NCBI GenBank assembly: GCA_026874595.1
Contig: CM049320.1
Coordinates: 30,490,714-30,554,713 of the forward strand
Length of the DNA: 64,000 nucleotides
Direction: 5' to 3'
Origin: Sipunculus nudus
Lineage: Eukaryota; Annelida; Sipuncula; Golfingiida; Sipunculidae
The notes beneath the pieces are model-generated. The model was not told where the DNA came from and made no database searches. It saw nothing but the letters and a program-made list of their open reading frames with translations. Made by a program: the position numbers and the translations under genes. Shown here one piece after another: positions 18,511-63,788 of this stretch (position 1 is the stretch's first letter; each line of letters starts with the position of its first letter).

Positions 18511-18602
18511 TCATTGGTACGCATTGAGAGCCCACTGGTTGAAGACATCTTCGGAAATCATTTCCTCTTCATAAAGGGAATCGAAAAACTGTCGTAACAA
18601 CC
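18511..18602 (-). CDS. EIF4G: eIF4G copy 1, terminal exon 21 (truncated W2)
   Basis: Reads [23 protein letters not shown], aligned with copy 2 up to NQW, then LNAYQ-type divergent residues and a TGA at 18513-18511. The copy 2 continuation (QEPAEQ...[13 protein letters not shown]) has no counterpart downstream. Homology breaks abruptly at the Trp codon, as at a deletion or rearrangement junction rather than gradual decay. Confidence 0.85.
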
Positions 18603-21600
18603 CTGGAAAGACAAACTTAGAAATCCTAATCTAATCCTGGCAAAAGTAACGAGATTACTATGGGCTTAAAGGACAGTAATTTATGAAACCCGATAAATCA
18701 AGAGTTTTGACCTTGTTGGCTAATTTTCCCCTTAAGTGCGGTTGTTTTACGAAAATACTTGTAGGTACCTGGCGGATCTTCCAGTTTATATACCAATGCT
18801 TGTAGTGCACAGAGTGCCTCCAGCTCAAGCTCAGCCTTATGGTCTAGGTACTTCTGCAACAGCACAAATCTCTTCTGGAATAGAGCTTTCTCCATTTTAC
18901 AGGTCCTATCTTCACCACTTTCTGAAACTACAAGAAGCATTGCAGGTACTTTAGCTCAGTGTAACAAACATAAAAACAACCGTAAAGGATGCATCAGGTG
19001 TCAGAATAAACTTCTTAATATACATCCCGAGAAAATGAAAAGAATTTTATTTTATTCATTTATTGAATTCAGGAAAATACAATCGTTTTTCTGTCAATTA
19101 AATCTTTTAATTAATGTTTCAAATGTCTGCATTCATGCAACGCTCGGCACCAAGTTCAAATTTAAGAACTCACTTTTTATTGCACTGTTACATACTGAGG
19201 TCATAAGAGCTTTAATAAATGCTGGTTCATTGACCTGAGAATCTGAGACATTGGCCTGCAAAGAAAAAGAAATTCATATGTAGAATATATACTTTTTGGT
19301 CGTTTAAGTTGCTGATTTTAAGTTATTAAGACAATGAACTTTTACTTCAAATTGAGTGTTTTCAGGCACTGATGAGTCACAATCATTAACATTTGCCAAT
19401 ATGTAAAATGAAAATCACTTGCACTGTAAAATTATTTTAAATGAATATTTAGTTCTTGAATATTTTTTTAATATTCTAGTCAACAGATAAATTAACCTTT
19501 ATTTTTTTAAGTACAAATGACGCCTATTTCATTATAAGTTTTCATTTTTTTAACTACACGTTAACTGTATTTTCTCACATTTGTCGCACTAAGTAAGATG
19601 CAGGAAATATGCTTGTTATTAAAATTAAAGAATTCTATAAGATCTTAATCATGAACCTGCTGTCATGTTACATATAAACCGAACAAAATATGAGTACTAA
19701 GATCGGGGCAACCGTGCATAACACGCCTGTTTATTATTAGTGTGATATGAGACCTTATTAATCATATTCAAATTTTGTCAGTTATGATATGACTGGCCTA
19801 AAAGCAAACATACTGCTATCCAGTAAAATATGTCTTCATTGTCCATCCCCCTCTCTACGATCAGCCGTTCAAGGTGAATAGAAACCTTCTGCATGGGCAT
19901 GGCCATACTGGGATCAGGTGAGCGCGGTACCATGCAGACTGTAAATTCTACTTGCTAAAACATTCACCAGATAACTTATTAATAGAAGCAATGCATACCG
20001 TGGATCATTTAGTTTATAGTTCTCACAAACATACCTCTACTTATCGACACTTATGGTTTCCTTCGTAAGGGCACTCAACTCAAAGCCAGAAAGTGCTTAA
20101 TTATCAAGATATAATTATAATTACTTATAGCTTAGGTTATATGTGACATATCAAATAAGATTTCCTTGCATAAGCTCTCACAAATGCTACTCTTTCGTTT
20201 CAAAGGCAAGTAGTATGATATATAAGTTGGCTTTCTTACCTTAGCTTTAACAAATGCCTGCACATTTTCGCTTGGAGAAAGGAAATCTGACCACTTTAAT
20301 CCTGATGCCTTCCACTGTTTACCAACTTTTATATGACCCTGAAATACAAATTCAGTAATACAGGAAATTAATTTAGCACACGCACATTAAACAGAACACA
20401 TAACCAAAGAATCCTTTCAGTCAGCTAATCAGCGGAGCCTGTCACTATGAATTAATTACACATTGGAATGTCCAGATTACATGGGAGCCAGATATTGAGA
20501 CAATATAAACATAACGAAACACAAGCAGCGAAACTATCAAAAGCATTCTGAGGAAGATTATCTAGATGTAAAAGTTTGCAAAATGTTATAATTTGTAACA
20601 TGTTGAGGACCAAACAAACCGAATTTACAGCTCGGCCTGTTTTCAACTGTCTCCTGTTCATCTGCTGGCCCAAAATTTTCGATATTGCTTAATGTGCTCA
20701 TTAAGACGACACGAGTTATCAATATTATACCTTCTTAAATTGTGGGTTCCTGTTCTTGAACTCATTGTGGTGTGTCTCAAATACGACATATGATATATAC
20801 CAACTAGGCATGCCATGTGAGAAAAAGATAATACTGCATATTTACACAACTCACCATATTATGTGCCATATTGTGCAAGACGAATGCGATGACTTCACCA
20901 GCTTTATAACCGAGTACCGAGTGATTAAGTGAACCCTTTAACGATTCAAGTGGCACAGTGTTATCATACACCATGTTGCCAATGAGTTCTCCGAGGTCTT
21001 TCCAAACACAAGGTATATTTACAGCAAACTTCAGGATCTCATTCAACCTACAATTATTAAAATTAATAAAAGAGGTGATTTTGAATTTAAAATGCAATCA
21101 ATCCGAATTAAAAAAATACATGATTAGCATGTTAGTTATCCCACGATCTTGTTTTTAACTACACGTTTTGTAAGAGAGCCAAAGATCATTGACTTAAACA
21201 GTAAAATTGAAAACACCATAACATTTTATATCTTAAAAGTGGCTCATATATTTGTGGGTGTGAAATACTCTTGTAAACTCTTATGCTGACAGTTACTGCT
21301 GTTGGTGGGATTTTTGGAACTAGCATTTACATTAGAAATTAACACTACATTTGCATTATAAACAAACAAAAATTGATATGTAACATCTCTGTAGTAGCAG
21401 AGGTTAGTGATATTTAAAAAAAAAGAAACAGGAAGGACTGACGGGTTTCTTTATTATTCCGCCCTCCTATGAAGGGATCCAGTTACTTAAGTAAAATATG
21501 TGTGGGATAATAAATTTTTGCAGTTAATGGGCCAATGATGCACTGCCAGTCATCCTAGCACGCCGCTGACTCTTACACTCCCTGTCTTTACCACAGCCAC

Positions 21601-22614
21601 CGAGGAGACGGTAAAAGTGAGACTGCGCATACAAGTGTCCTGACATGGTTGGATAAAAAAAGAGTTATTAAAATTAAATGAATATATATTTTTGTAGTCT
21701 CGATTTCAGTTAATTCAAGTTTCCAAGGAGATTTTACAAGGACTTCCCTGAAATTTGAGTAAGAAAATTCTAGCTTCGACATTAATGATTTGCATCAAGT
21801 CTGGCTTTTTAGGATGTCTAAAATGATCTTTTATCAAAGGTTCCAAGAATAAGGGTCACAGTAAGGTTAAAAAAATTTAGATCACAGTGTCCTATTTTCT
21901 GGTTACCGAGAACATTTCCAAAGACCTCTTAGGATGGTACAAATCCTATGACCAAAACATTCATGTTTACCTGCCAAATATAAAAAAATGCCTTCCTGGA
22001 AAGATCAGGAAAACTTGTATAGCGCCATGTGGCCGATTTTCTCAGGGCTGGTGGTGGATTGTCACGACAGCCCGGGAGTTGATTCGACAGTCCCGTATTA
22101 AATTGATAGCTGTATACTATGGCACAAATCAGTGCTGCCAGTTCCAGATGGAAAGATTTGATTCCCCTTCCGGACAGATCAGACTATGCGACCGGAGGCA
22201 AGGTATGTATGCTTGTCATTCAGTGAAAAAGGAATCAGCTTACTAGCCCTGGTCTATTGAAGCATTTACTGACTTTTCCTAAAGAAAGGGAGAGAGAAAA
22301 TACGAGAGATGACCACTGCTCCCCGTTATATTGTGTAAAAGGTTTCTATGTTTATCAATCTTTGTGTTTGCCTAGTCAGATCTTCTGGTTGCTAAAATAC
22401 TGTGTGCCCATAATTCACAAAAATTATGTCACAGTATAAGTTTAACCAGGACTTTCTTTTATATTACGTTTAAAATTTCTATTACCAATTTTTACAAATT
22501 TTGCCCATATGACTTTCAGGAAGCTAAATAGAATTTTATTTAAACAGTAACGTGTTTGATATGGTTCTCTAACGTTAGGTTTGCTAATTTTCTTCGTTAT
22601 TTGCAGGATGGCAG

Positions 22615-22646
<32 letters not shown>

Positions 22647-25600
22647 TAATATATATTTATATATTTATATATTTATATGGATATGATGCATATGCTTTCG
22701 TTGTTTGGATAAGATACACCATTTCTGCAAAAAAGTCACACAAATTTGCATGACGTGTAGGGAGTGAGACAAATTTTGGCATGTGGCTCATTTGCCTCAT
22801 TATATACATATATTCACAATTTTGGGAATCTGATTAGCAATGGCTGAGAAGCTCCGTTTTGGTTCACAACAGATGACGGACGACAGATGATGAATAAAAG
22901 TCGTTAAAAAATCTGTGCAGCAATGACATCATAAAACATATTTAAATTACTGTATATATTTAACATGTTTCTAAAATCTTACCCCCTCAGATAATGCTCA
23001 GTTGTGAGATGGCCTTGTCTGACCAGGTCGTGGAGTAAATGAGGAACTTGTTTGCGAGCCTTATGGGAGCTTTTTAGGACCTTATTCATAGCATGGTACA
23101 CAAATAAATGTAAAGAATTAGGCGACTCCAGGTCTCTGACATTGTGGATTGCTTCCTGTAAAACAAATTTCAAATGTAAGCTTATATTTAAAAGTGCCCA
23201 TTCACCCACCTCTTTAACAGGAATTTTTTTATAAATGGCTTCCTTTGTGTATATATTAATGATCTCAAGGTAATTTTGGTTGTGAAAAGTTCTTACAACA
23301 CCTTTGTGAAAGGTGTATTAACTTGTTTATCAACATGTTTGTAAACACAGCAATGTTGACAAATGGGAAAACAATGTAACCTGAGGTGGTAGGTTGCATA
23401 TATGCAAGGAAGAAAGGTCACTTGTTGCAAATTGCCATTTGTAAAGCTCTGGCTTATCCGACTTGCTGCCAGATGCCCTTGTTGAATTTGTTTTGATTAT
23501 TTTGGCGGGCCCCCACATATAATAAACATATTGACATTAACAAAACAAGCAGCCTGTTTTTGGTGATATCCAAGTTATCTGGATTGTTTTTGTAAAAGCT
23601 CCAAGGGATTATCTTTAGTTTATAAAGGTATGATAGGTGATTTGGACCCTTTAAACAATTTATACCAAACACCTCGATATATTGATCCTTATGGTTAAAA
23701 TGCTTTTCTCCTATTTATGTATGAACAAAATATAATAAAGGTCAACCATTTTAGAGTAAATTTTCCGTCCAGAAAATCAATAGATTGATAACATTCTATT
23801 GGCATAAACATGAATAAATGCATATTTTATCACAAGATCTATTTGCATATCCTATTAAAGAAGACAAACACATTGTGATAATTCAGTTGTAAACATCTAC
23901 ATATTATCAGTACCCTAAACAATAAATTCCCACTATCACCATGAAACAATAGAAAATAATCAATTCATCATCCGGTCGACCAAACATTTATCTCTATAAA
24001 AAGATAAATTTTTCCCTGATATGATTACATTTAACATGATAACATGTTGATGCAATGACTAGATTTGTGGAGAAATTTCTTTACATTCAGATCATTAACA
24101 TGGAGGTATTCCTCCAACAATGAATTTGATTGCTGTTCAATCTCTGATGGAGACAATTCTTTAGCTGCGGGTTTCTCGAGTTGAATTCTCAGGCTTCGAC
24201 TAATTTGTCGGCTCGATGGGGTGGGTGTACGTAGGTCCTGAAGACGTCTGAAAGTAAAAAAAACCTCTTATAATACAGTGCTGACTTCCTATTAAATGTA
24301 ATATTTAGATACATGTGAATGATGGATGCCACAACTGAGTTCTGATTGTTTTCGCACAACATATTGTAATATCTGCAAATATGTTTGCACTAAGTTCGGA
24401 TTTGGATTTATACGTTGTCATTATAAATGTAGTGATTGGACCTGATGAGACTACCAACAAAAGCTACTTTTAAAGTTTCAACATTTTCAACATCCATCTT
24501 TTGATATTTTAGTGCTATGCAAAACCTAGATAACATTTCATAAGATCATTAATATATATTTGCCCAAGAAGTAACCAAAAAATCAGGAAACCATCTATCA
24601 TTTTTGCCAATTAAAGAATTCACTAACAAATACAAGGTTAATATAAGTTTTATAACATATGTAGGTTTAGTGGATGCAATCCCAACTTGTTGGAAAAGAG
24701 AGTTAAAGAATAATCCTTGTTTAGAAGTACAAGAATATACGGTGGACAAAATAATAAATATGAAAAATACAACTCAGTTTGTATACTTAAATATTATTAA
24801 TTCTGTCTCTTCGAAACCAGAAGAGCAAATAGAGAAATGGATTGGTGAACTAAGGCTACAAAATAAAGGAAAAATATTTAAAGCATTCAAGAATATTGTT
24901 AAAATTACTATTTCAGAGAAATTAAGAATTTTCCAATTCAAATTATTACATAGAATTTTACCACTTAATCCTCTTTTATATAAAATGAAGAAAAGCGAAA
25001 CTGAACTCTGTTCATTCTGTAAAAAACAAAAGGAAACTTATCTACATGTATTTTACCACTGTGAAGTAACCAATAAATTGTTAATAGCTTTTGAAAATTG
25101 GTCAAAAGACCTGGAACAATCTTTAAACTTAGGCAATGTAACAGGAACAGTATTAATATTAAACATCTCAGGTGACAGCCTACTTGATACCTTATTACTA
25201 TTATTAAAACATTATATATATATCTGCAAATGTAGAGAGAAATTACCAACATTCTCTGTGTTTAAAAGTTATGTCACACAGATTTATAAAATGGAAAAAC
25301 AAATTGCGAGTGCAAAGTGTAAAATAGAGAAACATAAACAAAAGTGGAAGAACTTTCAAAACATACATATTGAAAACGAATAAAACAACATAAAGATAAA
25401 AACCCATTTAACCCACATTTTGAATTAGAACAACAGTTTTATCTCTGTTATTTACCTATGTTATTTGTATCTGTTTTGTATGTATGACTTTCAATTGTCT
25501 TTGTCTACAAATTGTCTTTATGTACAATGTACCTTATTGTTTGTACTATTTGTTTGGAATAAAAAAAAAAAGAAGAAGTAATTCGTGAAATATTGAAATA

Positions 25601-28600
25601 TATCGCAAATTTAGATTTAGACTGTTATAGGTAATAACTCCTAAACAATAGAAGAAACATTAAGAAGGAACACTGAAGAAACATCTGTTGGGAGCTTGAG
25701 AAAGCTTGACCTGTGAAGTTCAGCGGAACGGCTATCAGCTTGTTTTGCCCCAGGGGTCCTGCTCATTGTTTCTATTTTCGCTTTTGTAACGGATTAATTC
25801 GTTGGCATTGTGTCGAATTATTGGAAAATAGCAACATATTTGAGACAAGAGCATCGAAATGGTGCATGGTACGCCCGTTGAATATTTTGTGACCTCTGAC
25901 CTCATTAAATATGCGTGAATTTGCTGAGAATGAAATTCACGTAAGAAACTGTATGGGTTAATACTCCTCATGAGTAATATGATAATCCATTAGATTGTAG
26001 GTAAGCCTGGGTGGTGCCACAAAGGTGTGGTGACCTCTGACCTGGTTTAATATGCATGGATTTTTCTGAGAATTGACGGACAAAAAACGGACGGACACTG
26101 GGTATGCTATAAAACGTCACCTCATAGAGAAGGGTATCACAACTATATTTTGTCTTAATTTAATATAATTGGTATGCGAAAAGGTCTCTTTAACATCTCC
26201 TAGTAATTTTACCCGAATCTGGGTGAATGATCACACTTCTGTGGCGAAAACGAAAATACTTTTGCAGATATGCTATTTCCCCAGAATCCTCCACCTGTCT
26301 TGTGAGGTCTATGTTGACCGATGTTTTCATCGACAATGCCATCCTATAGCAAAGAAGAAAAACAATTACAATCAGATCGTTCACATTAATTTGATCTGAA
26401 AATTTTGTTCACGTAGTAAATTGTTCATGAATCCTCCGCCTGCCTTTGGAGACCCAAGTTGAATGTTGTGCTCATCCACTTGAACTGGCAAAAGCAAAGA
26501 ACACAGTTGTGTGTATTTTCACTGAATCTTCAAAAATAAAGGTACATTTTCATTCATCAAAATAGTCAACAATCTGCAATTACATTTTCACATATCTAAA
26601 ATATTTTATTTTTGCATTTTCGATAAAATTGGCATCTCATTTTCAAAGTTGCCACTAAATATACGAATAAAACATGAATTTGGAAACACAGGAATTCAAT
26701 CTGAACTTCTAGACGTATATTTTATCCCTTTATGCTATATAGAATAAGAATTTCTGTTTTTATACTATCAGACTTACATGGGTAAGCTTCATCTTGCTTG
26801 GATCTATAGACAGCGGACAAGCTTTTCCTACAGATTGCCAGCCGTCCATTCCTTTTGGTGGCTGGTAACCCTGGTAGCGTGCACCTGATGAAAAGAAAGC
26901 AATAACTGCATTACAAAGTGCAATACAATAAAACATAGGCACTGTAATGTGACAACAATAATACCAGCTTGGTGTTAATCATATTTAGAATGCAAAATAT
27001 CAGCCAAGTCCAAATGCTCAGACAGACCAGTAGACCCTTAAACTTCATCTCATGTTTCATTGGTGAAAAGAGAAATATAATATAATCTCAATCTCAGTCT
27101 TATCCTGACAAGGTGCAGGGAAAAGAAAGATACAATGCTCATGCACCACAGACTGCGAGCTTCTGGTTATCTTCAACTTGCAAGGTCAGGAAAAATAACT
27201 TTATTTTTCTGGAACTGACAAAGATCAATCCTGGCTCTCAAATGCTGACGTAAATTGCTAACATTTATTTAAGGGGCCTTTTCCAATATCTGAGTGTTTT
27301 TTTTTAAATTAAGATATCTCCTTGCACCTTTCATAGTAATAGACCAGGAAACACCAATAAAAAAAACAAAAAATCAAAACTTCTACAGATAAGACAGGTA
27401 AATAGCTAACGGAGCTCAACAATCACCGACAAGATTTTAATCTCTTTTGTAAAATCTAGTAGAATGAAGTTTGGGTATATCACATCTGGGAGTGTGTCTG
27501 TGGGGAGAAATTGTTGGCACGATCAATCTCATAAATAATATCATATCATCACTGGACATGACCAGTTGGTCGGGATAGGGGGGATGTTTGTAATCGCGTG
27601 GGTAGTTCTTGAATATCATATGACGTGTGTAGTCTGATCTCTGTTTTGTTTCTTGTGAGTAAATTCTTGTTGAGCCTCACGCTGAGCCTCTCTGTGAATC
27701 TCTTCTATAAGCCTTGGACTGTTGTCTGCTCTCTGTTGTCTGCTTCGAAGCCAGTTGTTCTGGAATGTCATTAAACATCAAGACCACTCATCATGATTAA
27801 GTTCACACCACAAGAATTTACATTACCCTGAAGAAATACACTTTGCTAACATCTAATGTAAACTCATAGTTGGCGGACAATACAAGGTATGTATATTTAC
27901 AAAGCAAAGTTTGTTCCTACGAATCACAACCAAACTACACTTTAAAAAAAAGTATTTTCCCTGTTTGCCACTCTGTTTAAATATTTTATACTCTTAAATT
28001 TATTTTCAGAAGATGATATGACACTAATTGTGCTTTGGAGAGATGTGACACTTATTAACTATTGGATGACACAGTCAATGAAATTAAAAACATATTGATA
28101 CAGGATTATATGACAATACTCATATAGTATTTGGCTATGTATTATAATAATTTACACTGCATCACAATGTATCGGTGAACTTTTACATCATTACAACCCA
28201 ACCATTCCCATATATCAATGGCTATTAATGAGAAATTTGTCGGAGATTTACTGTATTGTATTTTTTGTCATTGATATAACTGTATCATAAGGATATATTG
28301 GCTGATTATTATGTTCCTGTAAAATGTTCATACCAGTCTGAGTTCAATGATATCCATCAGCAGGAAGCGAACCCTGGAACACGTCCTTTTCTGGTCAACA
28401 ATCTTCTGCATATGTGCAAAGTACTGGTCCATCCTTTGCTGTAACATTAGAATTTATTTTGGCTGGTCAAGTGATACAATTTGATATTATTAAATTGTTT
28501 TATACAATAATGTGTCAATTCACTACTTCAGAACAACTCCTAAGGTGAACAGGGTGTTCAGTTCATTATGACTTTCGGTTTTTATAAAAGGGCACTAAAT

Positions 28601-31600
28601 CAACGTCGATATTAGTATTTGTTATAGAATATTTTGAAAGAGTGCTTAAGTCTTTACAGTTACAACCAACATACATAATTACTGTCTTGGAATTTAGTGA
28701 TATATAAGTACTGTTGTATTGGGTGTTTTAACTACAGTTGGAAGGTTACCTTGGCCTTTTCATGGTCCAGCTCTTTGCCAGTCGTAGTTAGAAGGCGACA
28801 TAAACATTCCAAGTTGTCTTCGTCATTCGACCGAATTAGTTTCATCATACAGCTGTGCATGATGGCTTCCGTCAACATTTTTAATTTAAACAATTCTCCC
28901 AAAAAACTGGAGGAACAGATCAAATAGGCTAATGATAATAATTTACACTTCGTGTGAGAGTAATGTTTAACTGTCCCTTGATCTGATTAATTACAAATGC
29001 ACAAGATTATAAGAAAATAAGCACTAACTAGACCCGCAAGAGATTACATGCTGCATAATTTTGTAAGTTGGATAACATTTTTTTATATAATCTTCAGTGA
29101 GATATTGTTGTATTAGCCTTTTACTGGTATCTAGACTTCTGAAAATTATTTAATAATCATAACTCATAATTGTATGACAATTTACAACTCATGATAAACA
29201 AAACACTAAAACACAAGAAGCTTGATTAATTTGATATTCATTTGTTCAACAGATATTAACTTCTTCATCAACTTGTGTATATCAACAGACAAAATGGTTT
29301 TATTAAGTTATCATTACTCTTACAGACTACGAAGCAAGCAATGCCTTAACCTACAACACACAAAAACCAGGGATATGAACAATATAATTGATTGTGGTCT
29401 GGGGAGTAAAATATAAATGATCTTAAACAGATCTTACTTTAGAATTCCTAATTTCCTCCTCTTCGCCTTTATTTCGGCTAACATTTGTTCCTTTTCTAAC
29501 ACTTTTTTCCTCTCCTTCTGCCAATCAATAATGGTTATGCATAAGATTTCTGTTTTTTATACTACTGCTCAGGTGAGAAAATCATTTTCCTTTCAAGTTT
29601 CAAATTTAATATCTCACTGATTATTACAACTGATCGTACATTACAAATCACTTTGAGATATCATTTAATACACGAGTACGTCCAGTTTCAAGGTATAATA
29701 GAATTGCTAAAAAGGGAAAAACAATCTGCAGTGTATTCTCATTTTGAATTCTTAAATGCTTGTGTTTCAAATGATTCTGCAGCGAATTTGACATTTTCAC
29801 ATTATGTAAGTCGTGTTCTTATCTCACTTCTTCATTCTCATATATGATTCTTTTATCAAATAAAAAAATTATTTATTCATTAAACTAATCCCAAGTTTTA
29901 ATATCACATTCTGGTGCCAGTGTCCAATAATATCAAGGTTAGGGTAATTACAGGTAACCAGGTTAAGCCATCTACTCATTGTTATTATTAGATACTCACT
30001 GGTGCATCATCAATTTCTTGCTGCATCTTTTCCAGATCCAGCTGGGTAGTTTTGTCTTTCTCAAACTCCTTTTGACATCGATTCAGCAGAATCTTTCTAA
30101 ATGTAACAAACTCATCGGGTTTGTCTTCTCTCGGTACCTTTGCCTGTAATAGAAAACAAATGTAATTAAAAAAATGCAGCTGGCACTTCTAATGAACAAT
30201 TTAATAATATTAATTACTGGTAATCACTTGTTTACGATAGTTGTACATTGTTGGCAATTAATTTTCTTTCCCAAGACCGGATAATATGTTCAGTAAACCA
30301 CTAAATGTGAAGATGTATATGAAAAACTCATAACACTCCATTATCTTGTTGAAAGGCCGGTTTTATATGAATTTTGCTGAGCGGCAGATTTCTACACAGA
30401 ATCCAACTCCTTTACACTCCAACCTGTTTTACTAAGGCTTATAAAGCACAACTGTTTGAGGTATAAGTAATAATACTTTTTGCACCAATATCAACACAAG
30501 GATATCCGCCTGGCAGATTACAGATTTTTCGCATCATCAAATTAATTTCGTGTAATCACTAAACTGCCAATGCAAAGACCAGCAACGAGGAATTCGTTTG
30601 TTTAACAGCAATATGCAGATAACTTAAATGATCATCAGTTGTCAGTCATCTGTACAATCCGTTTAACTCGGACTCAATGCCTGGCTTCCATACTTAAATT
30701 TATTTCAATTATAAAAATTAAATGACAAGAAGAGAAAGGCCACTTACCCCACTCATGCATTTGCACACATTTGCATATACGACAGCGTAGTTAGGTGCAT
30801 CAACAGCCTGAAATATAATAGACCTAAAGAGAAAGCTGGTTTAACGGACACCTCACTTAGGTGGATAACTCGCTATAACGGACGAGATATCAAAGTCCCT
30901 TCAAAATTCCATATACTTTAAGTATAATGGGAACCTCTGTTAGACGGACACCTAACTACCGAGGACTACGGACAAGAGACAAGTCAGGTGAACATTATCA
31001 GAGAAATAAACCTGAAAAATACGGACACGGCACTCTTCCATGGCCCGGCGGACACTAATCAATCAGCCCAGGCACCATCAAAGGCCGCCAGTACCGTAGT
31101 TATTGGTCCCGTTATAGAGGAAAAATTATTATGCAATCCCCAGTTGATACCGTAAAGAGTATACGTGCTCATGTAACGTTGGGATATGCTCACAAGGCAA
31201 ATCAATCGTGAAGCTTTAAACACCGTGTCACTTTATTTCACGCTTATACGTTCATCAATAGCAAAGCCGTGGGGTTATTATTTAGATTATACGGTTGCCG
31301 ATTACCGATGCATTCAATCTCAAATGCATTATTTAAATTTAAACTGAGTCACTTTGTTATAAATGGTTATTTGATATTAATTAATCAGTTTTACTCAAAC
31401 TGTCAAACAGTTTGCTCTCTCCGCAGTTATGTTTATACTGTATTATTCGCAGTTTGTGCAAATTCTCCAGCGGGTGTCCTTTAACCTCGTGGCTTTGAAA
31501 TACATACAGTATTACCGTACAACTTGCAACATTTAATGGCAGGGTAAATTAACATTGTTTTCAGGGGCCTCATAGACTTTACTCGTTACATTGTCTAATA

Positions 31601-50625: not shown

Positions 50626-50627
<2 letters not shown>

Positions 50628-53115: not shown

Positions 53116-53225
53116 AAAGAGGGGACACGTGTACATTTCCAACCATTTATTATTTACAAGCTCAGGTATATATTTGACACAATCGCCTGCTCAAAGACAT
53201 CACAAAATGACTGCAGGATGCATAT

Positions 53226-53474: not shown

Positions 53475-53634
53475 GGGAATTTTTTACAACTCCAGCATTT
53501 TCAATTCAGTAAGGTACATAATCCAAGTTTCATCCACACATTATCGAAGAGTAACAATTTTTTGTATAACATACTCGACTTTCACAAGATGCATGTTACA
53601 GTATCCTCTTGCGAATTCTCCGTTTAGTCTTTTC

Positions 53635-53844: not shown

Positions 53845-53914
53845 TGAAAATGATTACATAGCTCAGATATCCCCAATAGTGACACTATCTGTGTGTCAAC
53901 AGTATGTGTAGAGA

Positions 53915-54055
53915 CTTACCCCACTGCATACAATCCTAATCTTAACTGTACAAGGAAATACAGCTATATATTTATATCCGCGGCTGTGGAATGTATTAGG
54001 GGTGTAGTATTTTACCTGCCAAGCACTGTAGCACCAATCCAAGATGGCGGGAAAA
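53915..54055 (-). promoter_or_regulatory. Candidate compact promoter and first exon
   Basis: In minus orientation: CCGCCATCTTGGATTGG (a YY1-type site overlapping an inverted CCAAT box) at about 54035-54051, then GGATATAAATATATAG about 60-75 nt later, then a GGG|GTAAGTC donor at about 53921. Order and spacing suit a small transcription unit including the two open frames below it. Confidence 0.3.
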
Positions 54056-54631
54056 ATAATTATAATATGGCCAGACCTATAAATTTCCTAAAGTTTACCT
54101 TTTCAGGTAAAGTTCGCAAATAATACAACATCTAATAGTGACAGATAGGTGTGTAAATTGTGTGCCATTTGGTTTTGACAAAAATGGTTATACAAAGCAA
54201 TGTGCTTGTAATTCCATGCTTCTCCTCAGAATCATTCCAAACAGATTCACAGGCACACACATTCCAGTGTTTTTGTTGTGAATTCATTTTTCATGTTTTT
54301 GCTTCTGCAATGTGATTTTTTCCTTGTCCCCAACCCCTTCCAATATTTTGGCTTGACTGGTAAGTCCTTATCTTACTAAGCTGGATACAATTTGAGGTCA
54401 TGCAAATTATTCAACTTGTTTCCTTTTAAAGCACTGAAGAAACTAATAGGAAGTGATACAGCATTGCATGTGCTTGTGTATGTGTGTTGTGACAAAAAAA
54501 ATCGTAAAAAATAACAAGGAAATGCAATGAAACCATCCACTGCCAGGTTCCCCACAGCCAATAAATAGTTGCTAGATCTCCTAGGTACTACAGTATCCAA
54601 TTTGAAATGAGAGCTAATTCTTTTGTGGGTA

Positions 54632-54807
54632 TCAACTCTCCTCTTCATCAGCTTCTCTTAGCCATGTGAAAAACTGCACAACAGACTTCTGGGCCAGTGC
54701 TTTGCCAGCCTGCTCAGCAGGCTCTTGGCTCGCCTCCCACTGGTTGAAGGCATCTTCAGAAATCACATCCTCATCATAAAGGGTATCGAAAAACTGACGT
54801 AACAAAC
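54632..54807 (-). CDS. EIF4G: eIF4G copy 2, terminal exon (W2 end)
   Basis: 176 nt to TGA at 54634-54632. Reads [20 protein letters not shown], then [19 protein letters not shown] and [11 protein letters not shown], the complete W2 C-terminus. Confidence 0.95.
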
Positions 54808-57800
54808 CTGAAAAGAGCAAAGTGGATATTATCTGCTACAGTTAAGTTGGCCTAAGAAGAATGTAAAATACATGAAGATAAATATAACATTCAAATAATT
54901 TTCAAGGCGACTTTGTGAAGAACAAGTGCAAATCTTCCATGAAGGACTTTAGGGGACATGCTTAATACAACCCTGAAACACTGATCATATTGTCAAAATT
55001 TAACATGGTTAATATGGATCTACAACAATTTCAGAAAAGGACGTATCAATGCTTATTACTTTAAACCAAGGCAGAGAAACATGAAACTTAGCTGGCTGGT
55101 TATCAGTCAAGGTAATGTTATGACAAAATTAGTATATACCTGGCGGGTGCTCCAATTTATGTACCAATGCTTGTAGTGCGTAGAGGGCCTGCAGTTCCAG
55201 CTCAGCCTTATGATCAAGGTACTTCTGTAACAGCACGGATCTCTTCTGGATATGAGCTTCATCCATTTTACAGTTCCTACTACCACTGCCGTCTGAAACC
55301 ATGATTAAATGCCAGGTCTTATACCTCAAGTAGTATTTCAACACACAAAACACATTGGAATAAGATGCATAAGGTATCTTCGTAAACTTCTTTCATTACA
55401 AGTGGCCCATGGGCCATGATGCAGCTGTATTTGACTGGGTGCTCATTTCTTTTATTAATGTAATATATATTGTCTGTTAGAATAGCCTATGGCTAATGTT
55501 ACCATGTTGTAAAACAGAGAAAAATTTCAGGATTCAAAGAAAACTTGCTAAGGTCCCCCATGGATTTTACAATAGAAAGTTCCAAGTAAAATGGATACAT
55601 TTTGAACTGTTTGTCGGAGTGCTCAAAATCATGTTTCTGGTCCATAGCTTGCCGATTAAATGTTACCATGACCTAATTTTTAAAAGGAGATTTGCCAAGG
55701 ACCTCCCTCAATGTTCATTGAAGAGTCTAGGGCTAATGAATACATTTTGTGCCCTGTCTAATTGCACGAAATAATGCTTCTGGCCAGTAGGTTGCAGAAT
55801 GTAGGTCACCATGACCTTATTTAAATTTCAAAGAAGGATACGGCCAGGACCTAGGCCATATGCATATAACTTTACCCATCTAACTTTAAAGGTGCTCAAA
55901 TCATGTTTTCAACCCACAGCCTAGTTTGCAAAATATGATCACCATACCTAATTTCAGGTTTCAAGGGAGACTTCCTTTGAACCTCCCTGAATATTTGGTT
56001 AAAAAATTCTAGGTTTAGGAGATACGATTTGTGCCCATCTGACTTTATTGGTGCTTATATGACATCTTTTCCTATAGGTCACAAAATATAGGTGACAGTG
56101 TCTTAATTTCATGTTTCTAAGGACATTTGCCCTCGACGTCCGAGAATATTATTAGAAGATTCTAGGCCTTATAGATTCAATTTATGCTCAGTCTGATGGT
56201 TTGGGTGCTCATATGACACTTTTCCCAATACATCCCAGAATATTATATTAGAAGATTCTAGGCCTAATGGAAACAAGGGGACCCACGGGTCACGGCGCTC
56301 AGCTGTTATATATGATAAACTAGATGTGTCGGAACGACACGAATGCCCCCCCGCCTGGGGCAAATTAGAAACATTTGTAAAATTTTGAAAAATTTTTTAA
56401 GTTCAGGAGGTGTCGTATGGTCAAAAGTAGGTGAACAAGGGCAAAATGCAAACTCGATCTGTAACGGGTCATTATCAAGCAACACACCAAAAATCATGCC
56501 ATTACATGCAGGCATTGTGAAAAAAAGTCCATACATGTGCATTTTTCATAAAAATTTCTGTCTTTCATGAAATTTTCTCTGTTTAGGAGCTGTAAAACAA
56601 TCAAAAGTAGGTCAACCGGGACAAAACGTGAACTCAATCTGTAACTGCTCTATATCTGCCTTCACAACAAAAATCAAGCCCGTATCTGCAGGCACTGCGA
56701 AAAAAAAGTCCACACATGTGCACTTTTTTTTATGAAATTTTCTTATTAGAGCACCGTCAATCGGTCAAAAGTAGGTCAACTGGGAGAAAACGTGAACTCG
56801 ATCTGTAACTGGTCATTATCTGCCCACACACCAAAAATCTGGCCAATATCTGCAGGCATTGCGAAGAAAAGTCCGTACATGTGTATTTGTCATGAAAATT
56901 TCTATTTTCTAAGTTTAGGAGCCGTAAATCAGTCAAAAGTAGGTCAACTGGGACGAAATGCGAACTCGATCTGTAACTGGTCATTATCTGCCTACACACC
57001 AAAAATCAGGCCAATATCTGCAGGCATCCCTAAAAAAAGTCTGTACATGTGTATTTGTCATGAAAATTTCTATTTTTCATGAAATTTTTTTTAAGTTTAG
57101 GAGCCGTAAAACGGTCAAAAGTAGGTCAACTGGGACAAAACGCGAACTCGATCTGTAACTGGTCTATATCTGCCCACACACCAAAAATCAGGCCAATATC
57201 TGCAGGCATTGCGAAAAAAAGTCCGTACAACTGTGATTTCCAAAGGACGGAAGGACGGACATGGGTATAACTATATGCCCTGGCCACTTTGTGGCGGGGG
57301 CATAAAAATATGATTTGGGAAAGAGGCACATGCTGGTTTTGTGTGGTATTAAATATAAGCTTTATTATGAGTTGTTGTTTAGCTTGTGTATGATTTTGAT
57401 AGTATCTTTTGAGACAGGGAAGAAGATCGATTCCATTTATTTTAATAACAAATGGAGTGCTTTTGTCACACAGATTTTGACTTGGCCATATAACGTATAA
57501 GCAGCACATATAATAAAAGAGTTTAACTATTTATTAAAATTTAATAACAAATATTGTGCCAATATAATTTTTATTTTAAAAAAATAATAAGAAAATCATA
57601 TGATTTTATAAAATAAAATATAACCGAAATGATTATTGAAATAATATTATAGAATATATTCATGAATGCATGCATGAATACGTTTTGAAAGTATCTGCAC
57701 TGATATTCAAATACTTCAATTTTTACCTGAATTCCCATTCTCACGCAATAAAATTTTTTGATGCTGTATATATTCATATTCAAATACATTTGCAAAGAAT

Positions 57801-60800
57801 TTGCACCATGTCTAGCCAAACAATGATGTTGAGAATCCAGAATATACAAAATTCACAAATTTAAATAATGATCATAAGTACCTGGTTTTATGGCTTTTAT
57901 TTATATTAAAAAAAAATAAATGTAATATATTCACTTTGGACTTCTTTCACATCAGTCTACACACTAGACACAGTAGGAATCTAGATTAATATTATCAACT
58001 GCATCTTTGTCTATCATTAATTTCCTTCAAATGATCCCTAATGATTAGTAATGAATAATATGATTTTTTGTCATTAAAATTTCACTGAAAAATACCATAG
58101 GTGACTGCATGGTGTTATTTGGAATAACATTGACACTGACATTCTATCCATCCATACAAGATTTTTACATCATCAGTAACTGCAAGTTAATTTCCTTTTA
58201 GTCATCAACTAACAAATTCCTTTTCTTTTAATTTTTCTTTAATTTGTTATTAAAAAACAATAACAAATTATTAATTGTTTATTGTTATGTTGTTTTTCAA
58301 AACAACTACTAGATAAGTTGGGTTGGACACCTGTATCAACTGTTGCTGGGCATTAACTGCCTGGCTGCCCCAGTGTATGCTTTGCTCAAGCGTGCATAAT
58401 CTGATGAAAGGTCAACAAGGTCAACATACAGGTGGCTCAAGAGGGGCTGTATTGAGCCTGGGTCTGACATGGTCTCATAAAAACATTAATAAAAGCTACA
58501 ATATTTGGCCAATTTCTTTCAGCTTTCTAAACTACAAAGATGAAATCCTTATGTGTGCATGATATGAAAATTATATCAACAGTGCTCTCAGGAAACAAAC
58601 GTGCCATGGTCAACGTTGGGCAAAATTTAAGGTACTAATTTTATATTTATACTAATAACTTATAAAATTTTTAAAATTCATAATTTTTGGTATTCAATTG
58701 AATCTTGATTAAATAATGTTACATCCCTGACAAAAAATCTCTCGCTTCCAACAAGCTTCAGCAATCCTCTTGTTAAGGGAGTAAATAAATTTCTTGATTT
58801 TTAAAAAAGTGCATTATGTTTGGGCCCATAACTTAAAACAATTACGCAATACTGACATCATTTCTGGCATGTGCATAGCGAATGTATAGAAAAATATGTA
58901 TATTATATATGATCAAAGTCAGATCAGTGGTTTTGATATTAGGCAGTCTTACAGTGTAACAATGGGATTTAATGGGAAAAATAAAGGGAAAAAACGTGCC
59001 ATGGTCAAACTTGGGCAAAATTTAAGGTACCATTTTTATATTTTTGCCAGTATTTAAAAAAATTTAACAGATTTTGATCTAATTTTTGGTATACAATTAA
59101 ATTTTGATCAATTAAAGTTGTATTACTGAATAAAAAGTCCCTACCTTTAACACTTTTGGTCTTAAGTGACCAAATATCTTTCCTGATTTTTTAACAGTCC
59201 ATTATGTTTGGGCCCATAACTTTTTTAAAATTAAATAATACTGACTTAATTTCTGGCATGTACATAGGAACTATATAGAGGAATATTTATGGTAAATATG
59301 AAGAAAACAAAATGAGTGGTTTTGATATTAGGCAGTCCTGAAGTGTGAAAAAAGATTTCTAATAAAAAATTGAGGTTTTTCCTTAATATCTCAAAGGAAC
59401 AAAGTCCTATTGACCCAATTTTCGGCATGGTAGGAGATTTTGGGGACATCTAACTGTATGCCGAATTTCAGATTCGTAGGTCCAATGGTGTCGAATTGTG
59501 CCAGTCTTACGGACGACGGACAATGGACCACGACTATAGCTCAGATGACTTATAGTCAGCTGAGCTAAAAATTGTGCCCTGTCTGTCTGGGTGCGCAAAA
59601 ACCATTTTTTGGCCCATAGGTCGCAAAATATGTCAGCATGACCTTTTAAAAAGGACATCTGCCTAGGACCTCTGAATATTATGTCAAAAGATTCTAGGCC
59701 GGATGGATACAATTTGTGCCCAATCTATCTGGGTGTTTAAAAACCCTTTTTTTGGCCTGTAGGTCACAAAATATAGGTCACAATGACCTAATTTTGGTTT
59801 TCAAGGGGTTTTGTCTAAGATCTCCCTGGCTGTACAGTAACAAGTTTCTAGGTCTAAGGGTTATGATTTATGCCCTGTTAATGGCCAGACAACCAGACGG
59901 CCAGACAACAAAGGGTTTTCAGGATAGCTCACATGACTTACAGTCAGCTGAGCTAAAAATGGGGAGATTTCCTCCAGTTGATCTTAAGTCTCCTGCTGCA
60001 AAATTAAGAATATATTATTCCTAAGACATTGATATGTCTACATTTTAATCATTTACTGTGCAGAGGAAAAAAAAGAACCATCTCTAACCACTGACAAGTT
60101 TCTTTAAGGCTTTTGAGTGCCTGCTTTGATGTAATAGTCTGGCAACCTGTAATGTTTAGAGAGAACTCACTTTTTATTGCACTTGTACACACTGAGGTCA
60201 TCAGGGCTCTTATAAATGCTGGCTCCTTTGCCCGAGAATCTGGGACATTTGCCTGCAAAGAAAAAGTAATTCTCTTATTAGATAATTGTCATACTTCCCA
60301 GTTTCAAGTTAATGAAGAGTTACTGTAACTTCAAAATGGACAACAATTATGAAACAGAGTCACTCACAACTACGATACTTGCAAAATGTAAAACACAAAA
60401 TGCTTCAACTTCACTTACTCACCAATTTATGTTTAATGCATATTTTGTATTATATGACTTGTTTCATACTTGTCCATGAAGGTACTATTGTTCATATACT
60501 ATTCAGTCCATGAAGGTACTATTGTTCATATACTATTCAATGGATAGGTTAATATGAAAAGTACATTCATATTAATGATTCATATTTCATGATTAATTTT
60601 CTAAGTTTTTCAAACCTTTTTCTTATTTTTCAGGAAGGCTAGTAGAAGTGTTTGAACGCTCATACTATACAAAACAAAAACTATACATACATCAGCCAGT
60701 CATCTAAGATACTAAGCAAGAATGGTTTTCCTTCAAACCATATCTTATGTATAAACGCAAATATACAAATGAAAATAGGAATAGTCAGTAGTAAACATAC

Positions 60801-61380
60801 TGCAATCCAGTCAAATATATCTTCATTCTCCATCCCCCTCTCAACAATCAGCTGGTCGAGGTGCCACGAAATCTTTTCCATGGGCATAGCTGTGTTGGCA
60901 TCAGGCGAGCGTGGCTCCGGATCTAGTGTAAATTCTAATTTCTGAAATATAGACCAGTTTACCTATAAATAGCAACAAAACAAATATCAGATCAGTCAAC
61001 TTTTGTATTACACAAACCCCTCAACTTGGGGGACTTCTGTATCACAGGCACCAGTCTATTATGGAATCAAGATTGTCCCATCAAAATTTATTCTAGATAA
61101 TTATAAATGTGAATGTCCAGACAAATCCATATTACAGGTATATCATGAGAATATCTCTATCATAGACACTTTATCACAGTAATGAGTAGAAGCGGAATCA
61201 ATGATCGGAGTGGAATGTTTATCCGCAACTGCACCACTTTCAAAAAGTAGATAATCTTTCTCTATATAATCACTGATTTAATCATTCCACACAACTTGGT
61301 GGGAGGCAATCACAAAATTTCAACATGGTGAACATTCCACCTAACCCTTTTTGGTAACAGTTATTAAGACTGATCATAAT

Positions 61381-61450
<70 letters not shown>

Positions 61451-63788
61451 CAAGGTAGTTAGGCAATTATAAGGACATTGTTATATTTAACTTATTTAGA
61501 TAACAAAATTTGGTTTCGCTACATTAACTCCGACAAATGCTTTAGACCTATTCTCTCATATGATACCAGGTATTATGGTATACCACCCTTTAAAATTTTG
61601 GTTTTCTTACCTTAGCGCTGACAAATGCCTGTACATTTTCACTCGGAGGAAGGAAATCTGACCATTTTAATCCTGATGCCTTCCACAGGTCACCAACTTT
61701 GATATGGCCCTGCAAAGAAGATTCAGTAACATTTGAAGAAAACCATAGTAGTATACACAGTATATATTGAATAATTTCTGTCAGCTGATCAGCAGCATCT
61801 CTGCCTTTGAATTTATATCAAACTTTAATGTAATTTTGATCTCAAGACAGAGAATATTAAACAAGACAAGCTGCGCAGCCTCAATGGCATTCTGAAAAAG
61901 ATTAGGTTAACCAAGTCTTCGAAGAGTTAAAGATCAAAGAAATTTACAGCCCACCCTCCTTTCAACAGTCTCTAGCTCAACTAGAAAACCTCACTATTCA
62001 CAAACAAACCTACAAAGCTCAGTTCCTCAAAAAGTTATTTTCATATCAATGCAAATTCAGACGACAGAACATCAGTATTATAATATTATAAATTTTGGAG
62101 TGCCCTGTCCAGTAACTCATTATGATCTCACTCACATTGCACAAATGGTTTCTGCCGATCAGGCCATGCCAAGTGAAAAAGGTAATACTGGATGTTAATG
62201 ACTTACCATATTGTGTGCCACATTGTGCAAGACGAATGCCATGACATCACCGGCTTTGTTACACTGTACCAAGTGACTCAATGAGTCCTTTAATGACCGG
62301 AGCGGCACAGTGTTATCATACACCATATTGCCAATGAGATCACCCAGATATTTCCAAATACAAGGTACATCAATTGCTATATCCTCAGCAAACTCCAGGA
62401 TCTCCTTCAATCTGCAATCAACAAGAGTGGCCATTTTAAAAATGTGTGAATTTATCAGACACAATATAATGAAATATATGACCTTGATAAAAGATTATAA
62501 AATGTTTGTAGGTAACGGGGCCAAAGATACACTACAGGTCATCCCGGCACGAAGCCTACACTTAATGTTCCTGTCTTTATCATTGCGAGAAGACAGCAAA
62601 ATCGCGTCTGCTCACACAAGTGTCCTGACAGGGGTGGATCGTAAACCAACTTTGAAAATGATTTAAATATTTCTGTGGTCCTTCTCAACTAGAGTTCATT
62701 CCTCTGCATTTCATAGGTACTTTATAAAAGCTACCTTTAACTGGAATGGTTATTATACTAATCAGGAAAATAAGAACACATGGCACCTAATAAAGTAATT
62801 TCTACCATAAAAAATATGAATGTGTGCTAACCATGTAACAACATCTTCATCACTAAAAACTTGTTTTTTACTTTTGGCACAAACAATCTGAATAAAAAAA
62901 TTCTAAGGCTGAATTAAGAAATCTGATGATCTTAGATCTAATAACTAAATATAACATGGGTTGAAACAAAATACTGATAAACCCTACATATTCAATCAAT
63001 AACATTTTCAAAATATATAATGGTCTTACCCCTTCAGATAATGCTCAACAGTGAGATGGCCCTGTTTGACCAGGTCGTGGAGTAAATGAGCAACTTGTTT
63101 TCGAGCCTTATCAGAGCGTTCTATGACCTTATTCAAAGCATGGTACACAAATAAGTGTAAAGAGTTTGGCGACTCCAGGTCTCTGACACAGTTAATTGCT
63201 TCCTGTAAAACAATAAATTTTCAATATGAACACAAAGAATGAGAAAAATTACCCATTTTCCTTAAAAGGAACAAAGTATCTGTGAAAATGTCTGAAAGGA
63301 CCATCTAATCCTGAAGTGATTTAATTATACATGGAAAGGGAGTTAAGCTGAAATATGAGTAAAATTTGCTGTCCTAACATTAATAGCTTGATATTATACA
63401 ATTAGCATAACTATTTACAAGATTAGTAGATTGGTCTTAAATGAAAAACATACTAAGAAATAACATAAAAGCCATAACAGAAAGGAAAGAATGTCTTTTT
63501 TCAAAAGAATGTTACTTTATGTACCTTGTGACTAAGTGTTTGTTGAATGTATAGAAATTTGAAGAAAGAATGATAAATACAATTATGTGGGAATTCTTTA
63601 CCTTCAGATCATTAACATGGAGGTATTCATCCAACAATGAATTGGATTTCTGTTCCATCTCTGCTGGTGACAGTTCTTTAGCTGCTGGCAGTGCTGGTTT
63701 CTCAGGAGGCATTTCTCGGTTTCGACTACTTTCTCTGCTCTGGTTTCTAGACCCAGATGGAGTTTGCCGACCTGGGGTCTGAAGACTT
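54632..63788 (-). CDS. EIF4G: eIF4G, copy 2 (3' half; 5' part beyond the window)
   Basis: Eight exons cover about 404 residues: the linker end, the MA3 domain and a full-length W2 domain of a canonical eIF4G1/3-type scaffold. Exons: 63602-63788, 63030-63202, 62207-62411, 61611-61709, 60801-60941, 60171-60252, 55140-55292 and 54632-54807. All junctions are GT-AG with matching phases. The C-terminus ends [18 protein letters not shown], the acidic/aromatic tail typical of W2; in vertebrate eIF4G this domain binds eIF4A and Mnk kinases. The eIF4E-binding and MIF4G parts lie right of the window and could not be examined. It lies upstream of copy 1 on the same strand. Because it retains the family's usual C-terminus, it is probably the ancestral, fully functional gene. 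Confidence 0.93.
55140..55292 (-). CDS. EIF4G: eIF4G copy 2, W2 exon
   Basis: 153 nt; [20 protein letters not shown] and [15 protein letters not shown]. The preceding intron is almost 4.9 kb, expanded by repeats. Confidence 0.95.
55398..56310 (+). mobile_element. Family-1 element, interrupted
   Basis: Starts with GGCCCATGGGCC and runs through about five monomers ('TAGGTCACAAAATATAGGT', 'AGATTCTAGGCC'). It is followed at 56283-56305 by another palindromic start (GACCCACGGGTC..CGCTCAGCTG), which is cut by the family-2 element. Lies in the long copy 2 intron between the 60171-60252 and 55140-55292 exons. Confidence 0.6.
56331..57305 (+). mobile_element. Family-2 element, five ~170-bp tandem units
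   Basis: Opens with GTGTCGGAACGACAC, a palindrome, then CCCCCC. The phrase 'GTCAAAAGTAGGT' recurs at about 56419, 56600, 56763, 56932 and 57111. It ends with GGACGGAC, 'TATATGCCC' and 'GGCGGGGGCATAAAA', where GCCC...GGGC can form a terminal stem. Non-coding; intronic in copy 2. Confidence 0.65.
57306..58597. other. AT-rich intronic DNA of eIF4G copy 2
   Basis: Contains A/T-rich inverted stretches such as 'AATTTGTTATT...AATAACAAATT' near 58239-58270. No coding feature seen. Confidence 0.5.
58598..59390. repeat. Two ~395-bp direct repeats
   Basis: 'CGTGCCATGGTCAA' occurs at about 58600 and 58995, and each copy runs through 'GGTACTAATTTTATA' or a variant, 'TTATGTTTGGGCCCATAACTT', 'TTTCTGGCATGT' and 'AGTGGTTTTGATATTAGGCA'. 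The second unit leads into a family-1 hairpin end at about 59535-59570. Confidence 0.7.
59395..59960 (+). mobile_element. Family-1 ends, two nested copies
   Basis: The hairpin TAGCTCAG...CAGCTGAGCTA occurs at about 59537-59568 and again, degenerated, at about 59926-59957. The monomer sequence between the two ends reads 'AGATTCTAGGCC', 'AGGTCACAAAATATAGGTC'. Two elements of the same family are adjacent or nested. Confidence 0.6.
60171..60252 (-). CDS. EIF4G: eIF4G copy 2, W2 start exon
   Basis: 82 nt; [27 protein letters not shown], with the same split Asn codon at the donor (AAAA|GTGAGT) as copy 1. Confidence 0.93.
60801..60941 (-). CDS. EIF4G: eIF4G copy 2, MA3-W2 junction exon
   Basis: 141 nt; [20 protein letters not shown] through [10 protein letters not shown]. 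Retains the DWI motif changed to YWI in copy 1. Confidence 0.93.
61383..61443. repeat. (TA)n microsatellite in eIF4G copy 2 intron
   Basis: About 30 TA dinucleotides, in the intron between the 61611-61709 and 60801-60941 exons. Confidence 0.95.
61611..61709 (-). CDS. EIF4G: eIF4G copy 2, MA3 end exon
   Basis: 99 nt; [20 protein letters not shown] and [13 protein letters not shown], phase 0 on both sides. Confidence 0.95.
62207..62411 (-). CDS. EIF4G: eIF4G copy 2, MA3 exon
   Basis: 205 nt; [20 protein letters not shown] through [10 protein letters not shown]. Keeps the AEDxxIDVP helix that is shortened in copy 1. Confidence 0.95.
63030..63202 (-). CDS. EIF4G: eIF4G copy 2, MA3 exon
   Basis: 173 nt; [20 protein letters not shown] through [20 protein letters not shown]. 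Same length and phases as copy 1 exon 15. Confidence 0.95.
63602..63788 (-). CDS. EIF4G: eIF4G copy 2, exon with linker and MA3 start
   Basis: 187 nt; a Ser/Arg-rich linker ([20 protein letters not shown]) leads to [20 protein letters not shown] and HVNDLK. An alternative acceptor at about 63835 would add an in-frame RSRLDDNKQFTSIN segment. Confidence 0.92.

What the first reader, a model, noticed from the sequence alone, without database searches (positions are those of the whole stretch)
18511..63788. Tandem eIF4G paralogues on one strand
Two eIF4G genes lie head-to-tail. All eight exons shared in the window have the same order and phases, and five are identical in length (173, 99, 141, 82 and 153 nt). 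Many invertebrates have a single eIF4G1/3-type gene plus DAP5, so a lineage-specific tandem pair that keeps long open frames suggests subfunctionalisation.
Basis: partly seen in the sequence, partly recalled or inferred. Interest (0 to 1): 0.75.

Follow-up and report, generated by a model that had tools for sequence, protein, structure and literature searches.

The report
Tandem cluster of domain-trimmed eIF4G genes
One animal chromosome carries an intact gene for the translation scaffold eIF4G next to several rearranged copies that each lack different working parts, so the reported pair is part of a larger cluster and its second copy is a fast-changing, damaged or slimmed-down version.

Summary
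In detail: eight homologous exons, same order and phase, five of identical length; both copies are eIF4G1/3-type, not DAP5. They are not alleles (dS 0.41 over 788 codons). The interpretation changes. B is an ordinary complete eIF4G whose 5' half lies outside the window. A keeps an eIF4E-binding exon and MIF4G but has a 4-residue MA3 deletion, half a W2 and one lost splice donor, and changes faster than B (21 against 3 lineage-specific residues in MIF4G). More eIF4G-derived loci follow on the same strand: C has MIF4G and two W2 modules but no MA3 or eIF4E exon found; D has an eIF4E-binding exon and W2 but no MIF4G or MA3 found. The two D-type W2 modules look constrained (omega 0.16, interval 0.08-0.26). 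A divergent second group lies about 0.7 Mb away. Most likely this is a lineage-specific expansion: one housekeeping eIF4G plus domain-trimmed derivatives, some under selection. Expression is untested; A may be a recent pseudogene.

The parts
34578..34711 (-). Copy A, eIF4E-binding exon ([19 protein letters not shown]...)
   Evidence: tblastn with recalled human eIF4G1; boundaries; 82% DNA identity to the B exon at 81548-81681
33939..34155 (-). Copy A, probable exon with ...[14 protein letters not shown] (boundaries not fixed)
   Evidence: 81.5% DNA identity to B 79832-80053; frames
32626..32760 (-). Copy A, linker exon ([14 protein letters not shown])
31967..32110 (-). Copy A, MIF4G exon m1
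   Evidence: Pfam MIF4G 169 bits for spliced m1-m6
30748..30807 (-). Copy A, MIF4G exon m2
30000..30143 (-). Copy A, MIF4G exon m3
29438..29517 (-). Copy A, MIF4G exon m3b
28750..28906 (-). Copy A, MIF4G exon m4 ([17 protein letters not shown])
28334..28438 (-). Copy A, MIF4G exon m5
27639..27759 (-). Copy A, exon m6; its donor reads AT where B and C read GT (27638-27637)
   Evidence: A GAG|atcagac, B and C GAG|gtcagtg
26778..26884 (-). Copy A, linker exon l1
26213..26343 (-). Copy A, linker exon l2 (degraded relative to B)
24085..24247 (-). Copy A, exon e1 (163 nt)
22983..23155 (-). Copy A, exon e2, MA3 (173 nt)
20855..21047 (-). Copy A, exon e3, MA3 (193 nt; 12 nt fewer than B)
20240..20338 (-). 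Copy A, exon e4 (99 nt)
19814..19954 (-). Copy A, exon e5 (141 nt)
19174..19255 (-). Copy A, exon e6 (82 nt)
18769..18921 (-). Copy A, exon e7 (153 nt)
18511..18602 (-). Copy A, exon e8, truncated W2 (92 nt, ends ...NQWALNAYQ stop)
   Evidence: similarity to B stops at 18531
63602..63830 (-). Copy B, exon e1 (229 nt; alternative acceptor at 63788)
63030..63202 (-). Copy B, exon e2, MA3 (173 nt)
62207..62411 (-). Copy B, exon e3, MA3 (205 nt)
61611..61709 (-). Copy B, exon e4 (99 nt)
60801..60941 (-). Copy B, exon e5 (141 nt)
60171..60252 (-). Copy B, exon e6 (82 nt)
55140..55292 (-). Copy B, exon e7 (153 nt)
54632..54807 (-). Copy B, exon e8, complete W2 end (176 nt, stop included)

Best explanation
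This is a tandem expansion, most likely lineage-specific, of the animal eIF4G1/3 gene. B is the working housekeeping eIF4G: it binds eIF4E through its YDRSFLL exon, eIF4A through MIF4G and MA3, and Mnk kinases through W2. Shown: the domains are present. Inferred from the family: what they bind. A is a tandem copy that kept eIF4E-binding, MIF4G and MA3 but lost the end of W2. If it is expressed it would build an eIF4F complex that cannot dock Mnk, so that its eIF4E would be phosphorylated less (inferred). Its broken donor after exon m6 can be bypassed in frame by skipping m6 and l1 (228 nt), which leaves MIF4G and MA3 whole (shown on paper, not in RNA). C (MIF4G plus W2, no eIF4E site and no MA3 found) and D (eIF4E-binding plus W2, no MIF4G or MA3 found) arose by further partial duplication and fusion of the same units (inferred).
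For: Exon anatomy and phases. No internal stop in 62 of 62 modelled exons of B, A, C, D' and D; AG at 62 of 62 acceptors and GT at 58 of 59 donors, the exception being A m6 (boundaries were chosen by hand at homologous positions). Domains. B is the slow copy: A/B specific changes 28/10 in MA3-W2, 21/3 in MIF4G with human and 31/4 with C as outgroup. Pairwise omega A-B 0.33 (0.26-0.41), C-B 0.28 (0.21-0.37), D-D' 0.16 (0.08-0.26). In neutral simulations zero stops came in at most 0.2% of 2000 runs for D, D', A and C. Exon profiles over 254 kb (204 kb around the window, 50 kb of the second group): clear eIF4E-exon matches only in B, A and D; MIF4G exons clear in B, A and C and weaker in E; MA3 e2 clear only in B, A and E; W2 exons in B, A, C, D', D, E and F (the profiles were built from these copies, so the absences are the test). 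Genome-wide, 34 of 34 listed MA3-W2 matches lie on the same chromosome (whose counts are lower bounds).
Against: No transcript or protein evidence. A's lost donor and cut last exon are what a young pseudogene would show. C's own W2 is less constrained than its MIF4G (omega 0.43 against 0.17; exon e7 0.76, interval 0.34-2.00) and takes 14 against B's 3 specific changes. D-B and D'-B comparisons are saturated at synonymous sites, and D's eIF4E-binding match is under Pfam's cut-off (21.9 against 27 bits). That D's eIF4E exon and W2 exons form one gene is inferred from phase and distance. Spliced models are hand-built. One genome only, so the duplications cannot be placed on a tree of species. The Mnk consequence rests on what a review says of mammalian proteins (PMC9977666, passages read). 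DNA beyond the fetched stretches was not read, so missing exons of D, E or F could lie outside.
Confidence: 0.62

Rival explanations
1. Copy A is a recent pseudogene. It was functional for most of its history and was lately broken by the donor mutation after MIF4G and by the rearrangement that cut its last exon.
For: Donor GT to AT; W2 end missing and not found downstream; 4-residue MA3 deletion; fast change; degraded linker exon l2.
Against: No stop in 19 of 19 modelled exons against about 17 expected in simulations of 776 codons if neutral since duplication; constraint is similar 5' and 3' of the broken donor (omega 0.34 in MIF4G, 0.30 in MA3, 0.28 in W2), although this does not exclude very recent loss; in-frame skipping is possible.
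Confidence: 0.33
2. Subfunctionalised pair: A and B divide the ancestral eIF4G tasks, for example by tissue, as the first reader proposed and in the manner of Drosophila eIF4G and eIF4G2.
For: Drosophila eIF4G2 has a poorly conserved N-terminus, lacks a typical eIF5-CTD (W2) domain and is needed in spermatogenesis (PMC4388691, passages read): a precedent for an extra eIF4G without W2.
Against: B has lost nothing that was tested, so a division of tasks is not visible in the coding sequence; a one-sided rate excess fits relaxation or new function better. Expression was not testable.
Confidence: 0.2
3. Assembly artefact: allelic haplotypes or collapsed repeats placed in series.
For: None found; read depth could not be examined.
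Against: dS A-B 0.41 and C-B 0.26, introns alignable only in part and at 66-84% identity, different gene structures, no N in the 204 kb read.
Confidence: 0.03

Closest known systems
Animal eIF4G1/eIF4G3 (eIF4GI/eIF4GII)
   Same: B has the eIF4E-binding motif, MIF4G, MA3 and W2 in the same order. Best solved relatives are eIF4G1 (6zmw, 8oz0) and 1ug3 for B's MA3-W2, and eIF4GII 1hu3 for A's MIF4G.
   Different: Here the gene is followed on the same strand by partial derivatives; vertebrate eIF4G1 and eIF4G3 are complete and unlinked (recalled).
Drosophila eIF4G2 (testis factor)
   Different: No tandem cluster is mentioned in the passages read; A keeps half of W2; nothing is known of A's expression.
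DAP5/p97/NAT1 (vertebrate eIF4G2)
   Same: Lacks eIF4E binding and keeps MIF4G (PMC9977666, passages), like copy C.
   Different: C has no MA3 found and its MIF4G is 92% identical to B's; a separate DAP5 match lies on another chromosome (L004, E 1e-23 to eIF4G2 4iul_A).
4E-BP-type eIF4E-binding proteins (recalled)
   Same: Locus D has an eIF4E-binding motif without MIF4G, so it could compete with eIF4G for eIF4E.
   Different: D also carries a W2 domain of eIF4G type (57 bits), which 4E-BPs lack (recalled).

Membership tests
eIF4G1/3 (copies A and B) | eIF4E-binding motif Y-x4-L-hydrophobic (motif form recalled) | tested here: met
   B YDRSFLL (outside window), A YDRNFLL. For comparison: D YDRMFLL (eIF4G1 5t46_B at 3.6e-4; Pfam 21.9 bits, under cut-off); none found for C
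eIF4G1/3 (copies A and B) | MIF4G (HEAT-1) domain | tested here: met
   A 169 bits, B 189 bits. For comparison: C 178 bits; none found in D
eIF4G1/3 (copies A and B) | MA3 (HEAT-2) domain | tested here: met
   B 84, A 56 bits, cut-off 23.2. None found in C or D
eIF4G1/3 (copy B) | complete W2 (HEAT-3, Mnk-docking) domain | tested here: met
   B profile 2-77 of 79
eIF4G1/3 (copy A) | complete W2 (HEAT-3, Mnk-docking) domain | tested here: not met
   A profile 2-45 of 79, 30.6 bits against cut-off 30; A is a W2-truncated derivative of the family
eIF4G1/3 | PABP-binding region in the N-terminus | not tested
   N-terminal exons of B at about 103-107 kb were seen, but no PABP site was sought
DAP5/eIF4G2 | closer to DAP5 than to eIF4G1/3 | tested here: not met
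   A MIF4G: eIF4GII 294 bits against eIF4G2 138 bits; B MA3-W2: eIF4G1 347 bits against eIF4G2 81 bits
Drosophila-type testis eIF4G2 | male-germline expression and role | not testable with these tools
   no RNA data
Pseudogene (copy A) | frame or splice damage | tested here: inconclusive
   0 of 19 exons with an internal stop and introns kept (so not a processed copy), but 1 of 18 donors lost and the last exon cut

The most novel reading that the evidence does not exclude
The cluster is a natural series of eIF4G with domains subtracted, kept by selection. In particular, locus D encodes a small protein that joins an eIF4E-binding motif directly to a Mnk-docking W2 domain with no MIF4G or MA3. 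It would bring Mnk to cap-bound eIF4E (or act as a 4E-BP-like inhibitor) without recruiting eIF4A or the ribosome. A would be the converse: a scaffold that recruits eIF4A but not Mnk. Together they would uncouple eIF4E phosphorylation from initiation.
Probability: 0.27. Interest if true: 0.72.

Novelty: new variant of a known kind. Interest (0 to 1): 0.46.

Why it matters
eIF4G is usually seen as a scaffold whose domains must work together. A cluster in which one intact gene sits beside copies lacking MA3, lacking the end of W2, or keeping only eIF4E-binding and W2 would let the separate roles of eIF4A recruitment and Mnk docking be studied in one animal. It also matters for annotation: automatic pipelines would probably call these loci separate eIF4G1 and eIF4G3 genes, or fuse them (inference).

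Tried and rejected
A single gene with two alternative 3' modules (A as an alternative terminal block of B): rejected, because A has its own eIF4E exon, linker and MIF4G and B has its own upstream. Allelic haplotypes: rejected on sequence (dS; structure). DAP5: rejected. The intron block B 62500-62639 / A 21512-21654 as a hidden exon or RNA gene: no shared open frame, fold z-scores from -1.75 to +1.68 on the two strands, and one sub-threshold Rfam match elsewhere in the stretch searched; it is best read as leftover ancestral intron. Missing end of A's W2 looked for downstream: no similarity found. Rfam (gathering thresholds) and tRNA scans of the window gave nothing. A viral-contig scan with a 90-residue piece of A's MIF4G confirmed no relative. 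Tree of W2: only the D plus D' pair is a resolved grouping (100/100), so the order of duplication of A, B, C, E and F stays open. The placement of E, F and a plus-strand MA3 fragment (29.738 Mb) rests on tblastn and profile hits only; for E, m1, m4 and e2-e8 are clear and m3 and m5 are weak.

Genome-wide searches with a MIF4G protein and with the D-type W2 did not complete; 'on one chromosome' therefore rests on the B MA3-W2 query. The Pfam MIF4G search listed 9 matches: A one, B two, C one, E one, and four elsewhere. Of these four, pieces were identified by PDB search as DAP5 (L004), PAIP1 (L007) and UPF2 (a peptide read from L005 at the place of the L008 match; the neighbouring L005 match is taken to be the same gene and was not searched on its own).
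Full report
What was claimed and what is there. The finding names two eIF4G genes head-to-tail on one strand. I modelled both by hand from splice-site sequence. Eight exons are shared in the window, with the same order and the same phases; five lengths are identical (173, 99, 141, 82, 153 nt), two differ by multiples of three, and the last is truncated in A. Pfam and PDB comparisons put both with eIF4G1/3 and well away from DAP5.

More of copy A is in the window than was reported. Upstream of the eight exons A has linker exons, a full MIF4G domain in seven exons (32110-27639; Pfam 169 bits) and an eIF4E-binding exon with YDRNFLL at 34711-34578. A is therefore not a 3' fragment of B.

Copy A is changed in three ways that B is not. 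Exon e3 has lost 12 nt, four residues of MA3 that B and eIF4G1 keep. The last exon stops matching B at 18531 and ends after six unrelated residues, so that W2 covers only profile positions 2-45 of 79. The donor of exon m6 reads AT where B and C read GT. If m6 and l1 were both skipped (228 nt), the frame would be kept and MIF4G and MA3 would be whole; I have no RNA to show that this happens. Copy A also takes most of the amino-acid change: 28 against 10 in MA3-W2, and in MIF4G exons m1-m5 21 against 3 relative to B, or 18 against 6 relative to C, with recalled human eIF4G1 as outgroup, and 31 against 4 relative to B with C as outgroup.

The haplotype reading is excluded as far as sequence can exclude it. 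A-B dS is 0.41 over 788 codons (0.54 for the 364 codons of the eight exons alone). Introns align only in part: short blocks in the MA3-W2 half, longer ones in the MIF4G half, at 66-84% identity across the comparisons with B.

The wider genome. After several busy answers the window's own genome could be searched: 1.43 Gb in 153 contigs, window at C15:30490714-30554713. I read 204 kb including the window. B's 5' half lies at window positions 65.3-81.7 kb and beyond, with eIF4E exon, linkers and MIF4G open; N-terminal exons lie near 103-107 kb. To the left of the window on the same strand lie copy C (-26.8 to -44.6 kb) and locus D (-54.0 to -61.0 kb).

Copy C is close to B (92% identical in MIF4G, dS 0.24, omega 0.17), but no exon for MA3 and no eIF4E-binding exon was found for it. 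DNA similarity to B runs to about 165 nt past e1 and then stops, apart from a 25-nt match, a dispersed repeat and the W2 exons. In place of e2-e4 it carries a second set of W2 exons, called D' here, followed by its own e5-e8. Exon e1 ends in phase 0, D' e5 and C e5 both start in phase 0, and the D' e8 donor is in phase 0. Three spliced forms are therefore open on paper: e1 to e5, e1 to D' (no stop before the donor), and e1 to D' to e5. The last would carry two W2 domains (107.8 bits in two stretches). Against function of C's own W2: omega to B is 0.43 (0.26-0.65) there, with exon e7 at 0.76 (0.34-2.00), higher than in its MIF4G, and C has 14 specific changes in W2 against B's 3.

Locus D has an eIF4E-binding exon (YDRMFLL; matches eIF4G1 chain 5t46_B at 3.6e-4; Pfam eIF4E-binding 21.9 bits, under its cut-off of 27) and, 1.5 kb on and in phase, four W2 exons (57 bits). 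No MIF4G or MA3 exon was found in D by exon profiles with all filters off. D and D' form a well-supported pair (100/100) with dN 0.18, dS 1.12 and omega 0.16 (0.08-0.26; single exons 0.06-0.30, of which e8 has a saturated dS of 2.9), at similar rates in the two (15 against 11 with B as outgroup, 8 against 13 with human). D-B and D'-B are saturated at synonymous sites. In 2000 neutral simulations each, zero stops came in 0.2% of runs for D and 0.1% for D'. This is the best evidence that at least some derivatives are functional.

A second group lies about 0.7 Mb away at 29.738-29.785 Mb: a divergent copy E with weak MIF4G exons, MA3 and W2; a W2-only stretch F; and a plus-strand MA3 fragment. 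All 34 of 34 listed matches to B's MA3-W2 in the genome (E up to 10; the tool calls such counts lower bounds) are on this chromosome. Pieces of DAP5, PAIP1 and UPF2 are present elsewhere.

How it most likely works. B does the ordinary work. A, if used, is an eIF4F scaffold without the Mnk-docking end: in human eIF4GI and DAP5 the second C-terminal HEAT domain binds Mnk1 through two aromatic/acidic boxes (review PMC9977666, passages read). D, if one gene, joins the eIF4E site to W2 and nothing else. C lacks the eIF4E site and MA3. These roles are inferred from domain content; none is shown here.

Known or new. The closest described parallel is Drosophila eIF4G2, an extra eIF4G that lacks a typical eIF5-CTD and serves spermatogenesis (PMC4388691, passages read). 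Searches of the paper library for eIF4G duplication, mollusc or bivalve eIF4G, and eIF4E-motif plus W2 proteins returned no listing that describes such a cluster (only the listed titles and abstract starts were seen, and one search returned no paper).

Limits. Exon boundaries were chosen by hand at homologous positions, so the canonical splice sites (62 of 62 acceptors, 58 of 59 donors) are partly by construction; the absence of stops in 62 of 62 exons and the phase agreement are less so. dN/dS is by the Nei-Gojobori method with Jukes-Cantor correction, and the intervals quoted are from codon bootstraps of up to 300 draws. One genome, no RNA.

Noticed in passing
window coordinates -13995 to -10541 (C15:30476718-30480172; L013): Seven head-to-tail copies, about 526 bp apart, of an eIF4G N-terminal exon (peptide with NEIAARFAAQVAA) that occurs once in copy B near 104 kb. 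They lie between A and C; whether they are used as repeated or alternative exons is open.
   Followed up: partly
window 24553-25380 +: Open frame of 276 aa with a zf-RVT domain (35 bits), read as a retrotransposon remnant in the intron of A between l2 and e1.
   Followed up: yes
window 62500-62639 and 21512-21654: Non-coding block about 73% identical between the introns that follow exon e2 in B and A; no shared frame and no clear fold, best read as ancestral intron.
   Followed up: yes
window 56392-57270 and 48388-49240: Tandem arrays of about 168-bp and 340-bp units in the B e6-e7 intron and between B and A.
   Followed up: no
L043-L047 (C15:29736001-29786000): Second group of divergent eIF4G-derived exons: E, F and a plus-strand MA3 fragment; E's MIF4G is very diverged (m1 31 bits, m4 59 bits).
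   Followed up: partly
window 26213-26490 -: Copy A has two partial versions of linker exon l2 in a row; the first lacks the acceptor position used in B.
   Followed up: partly
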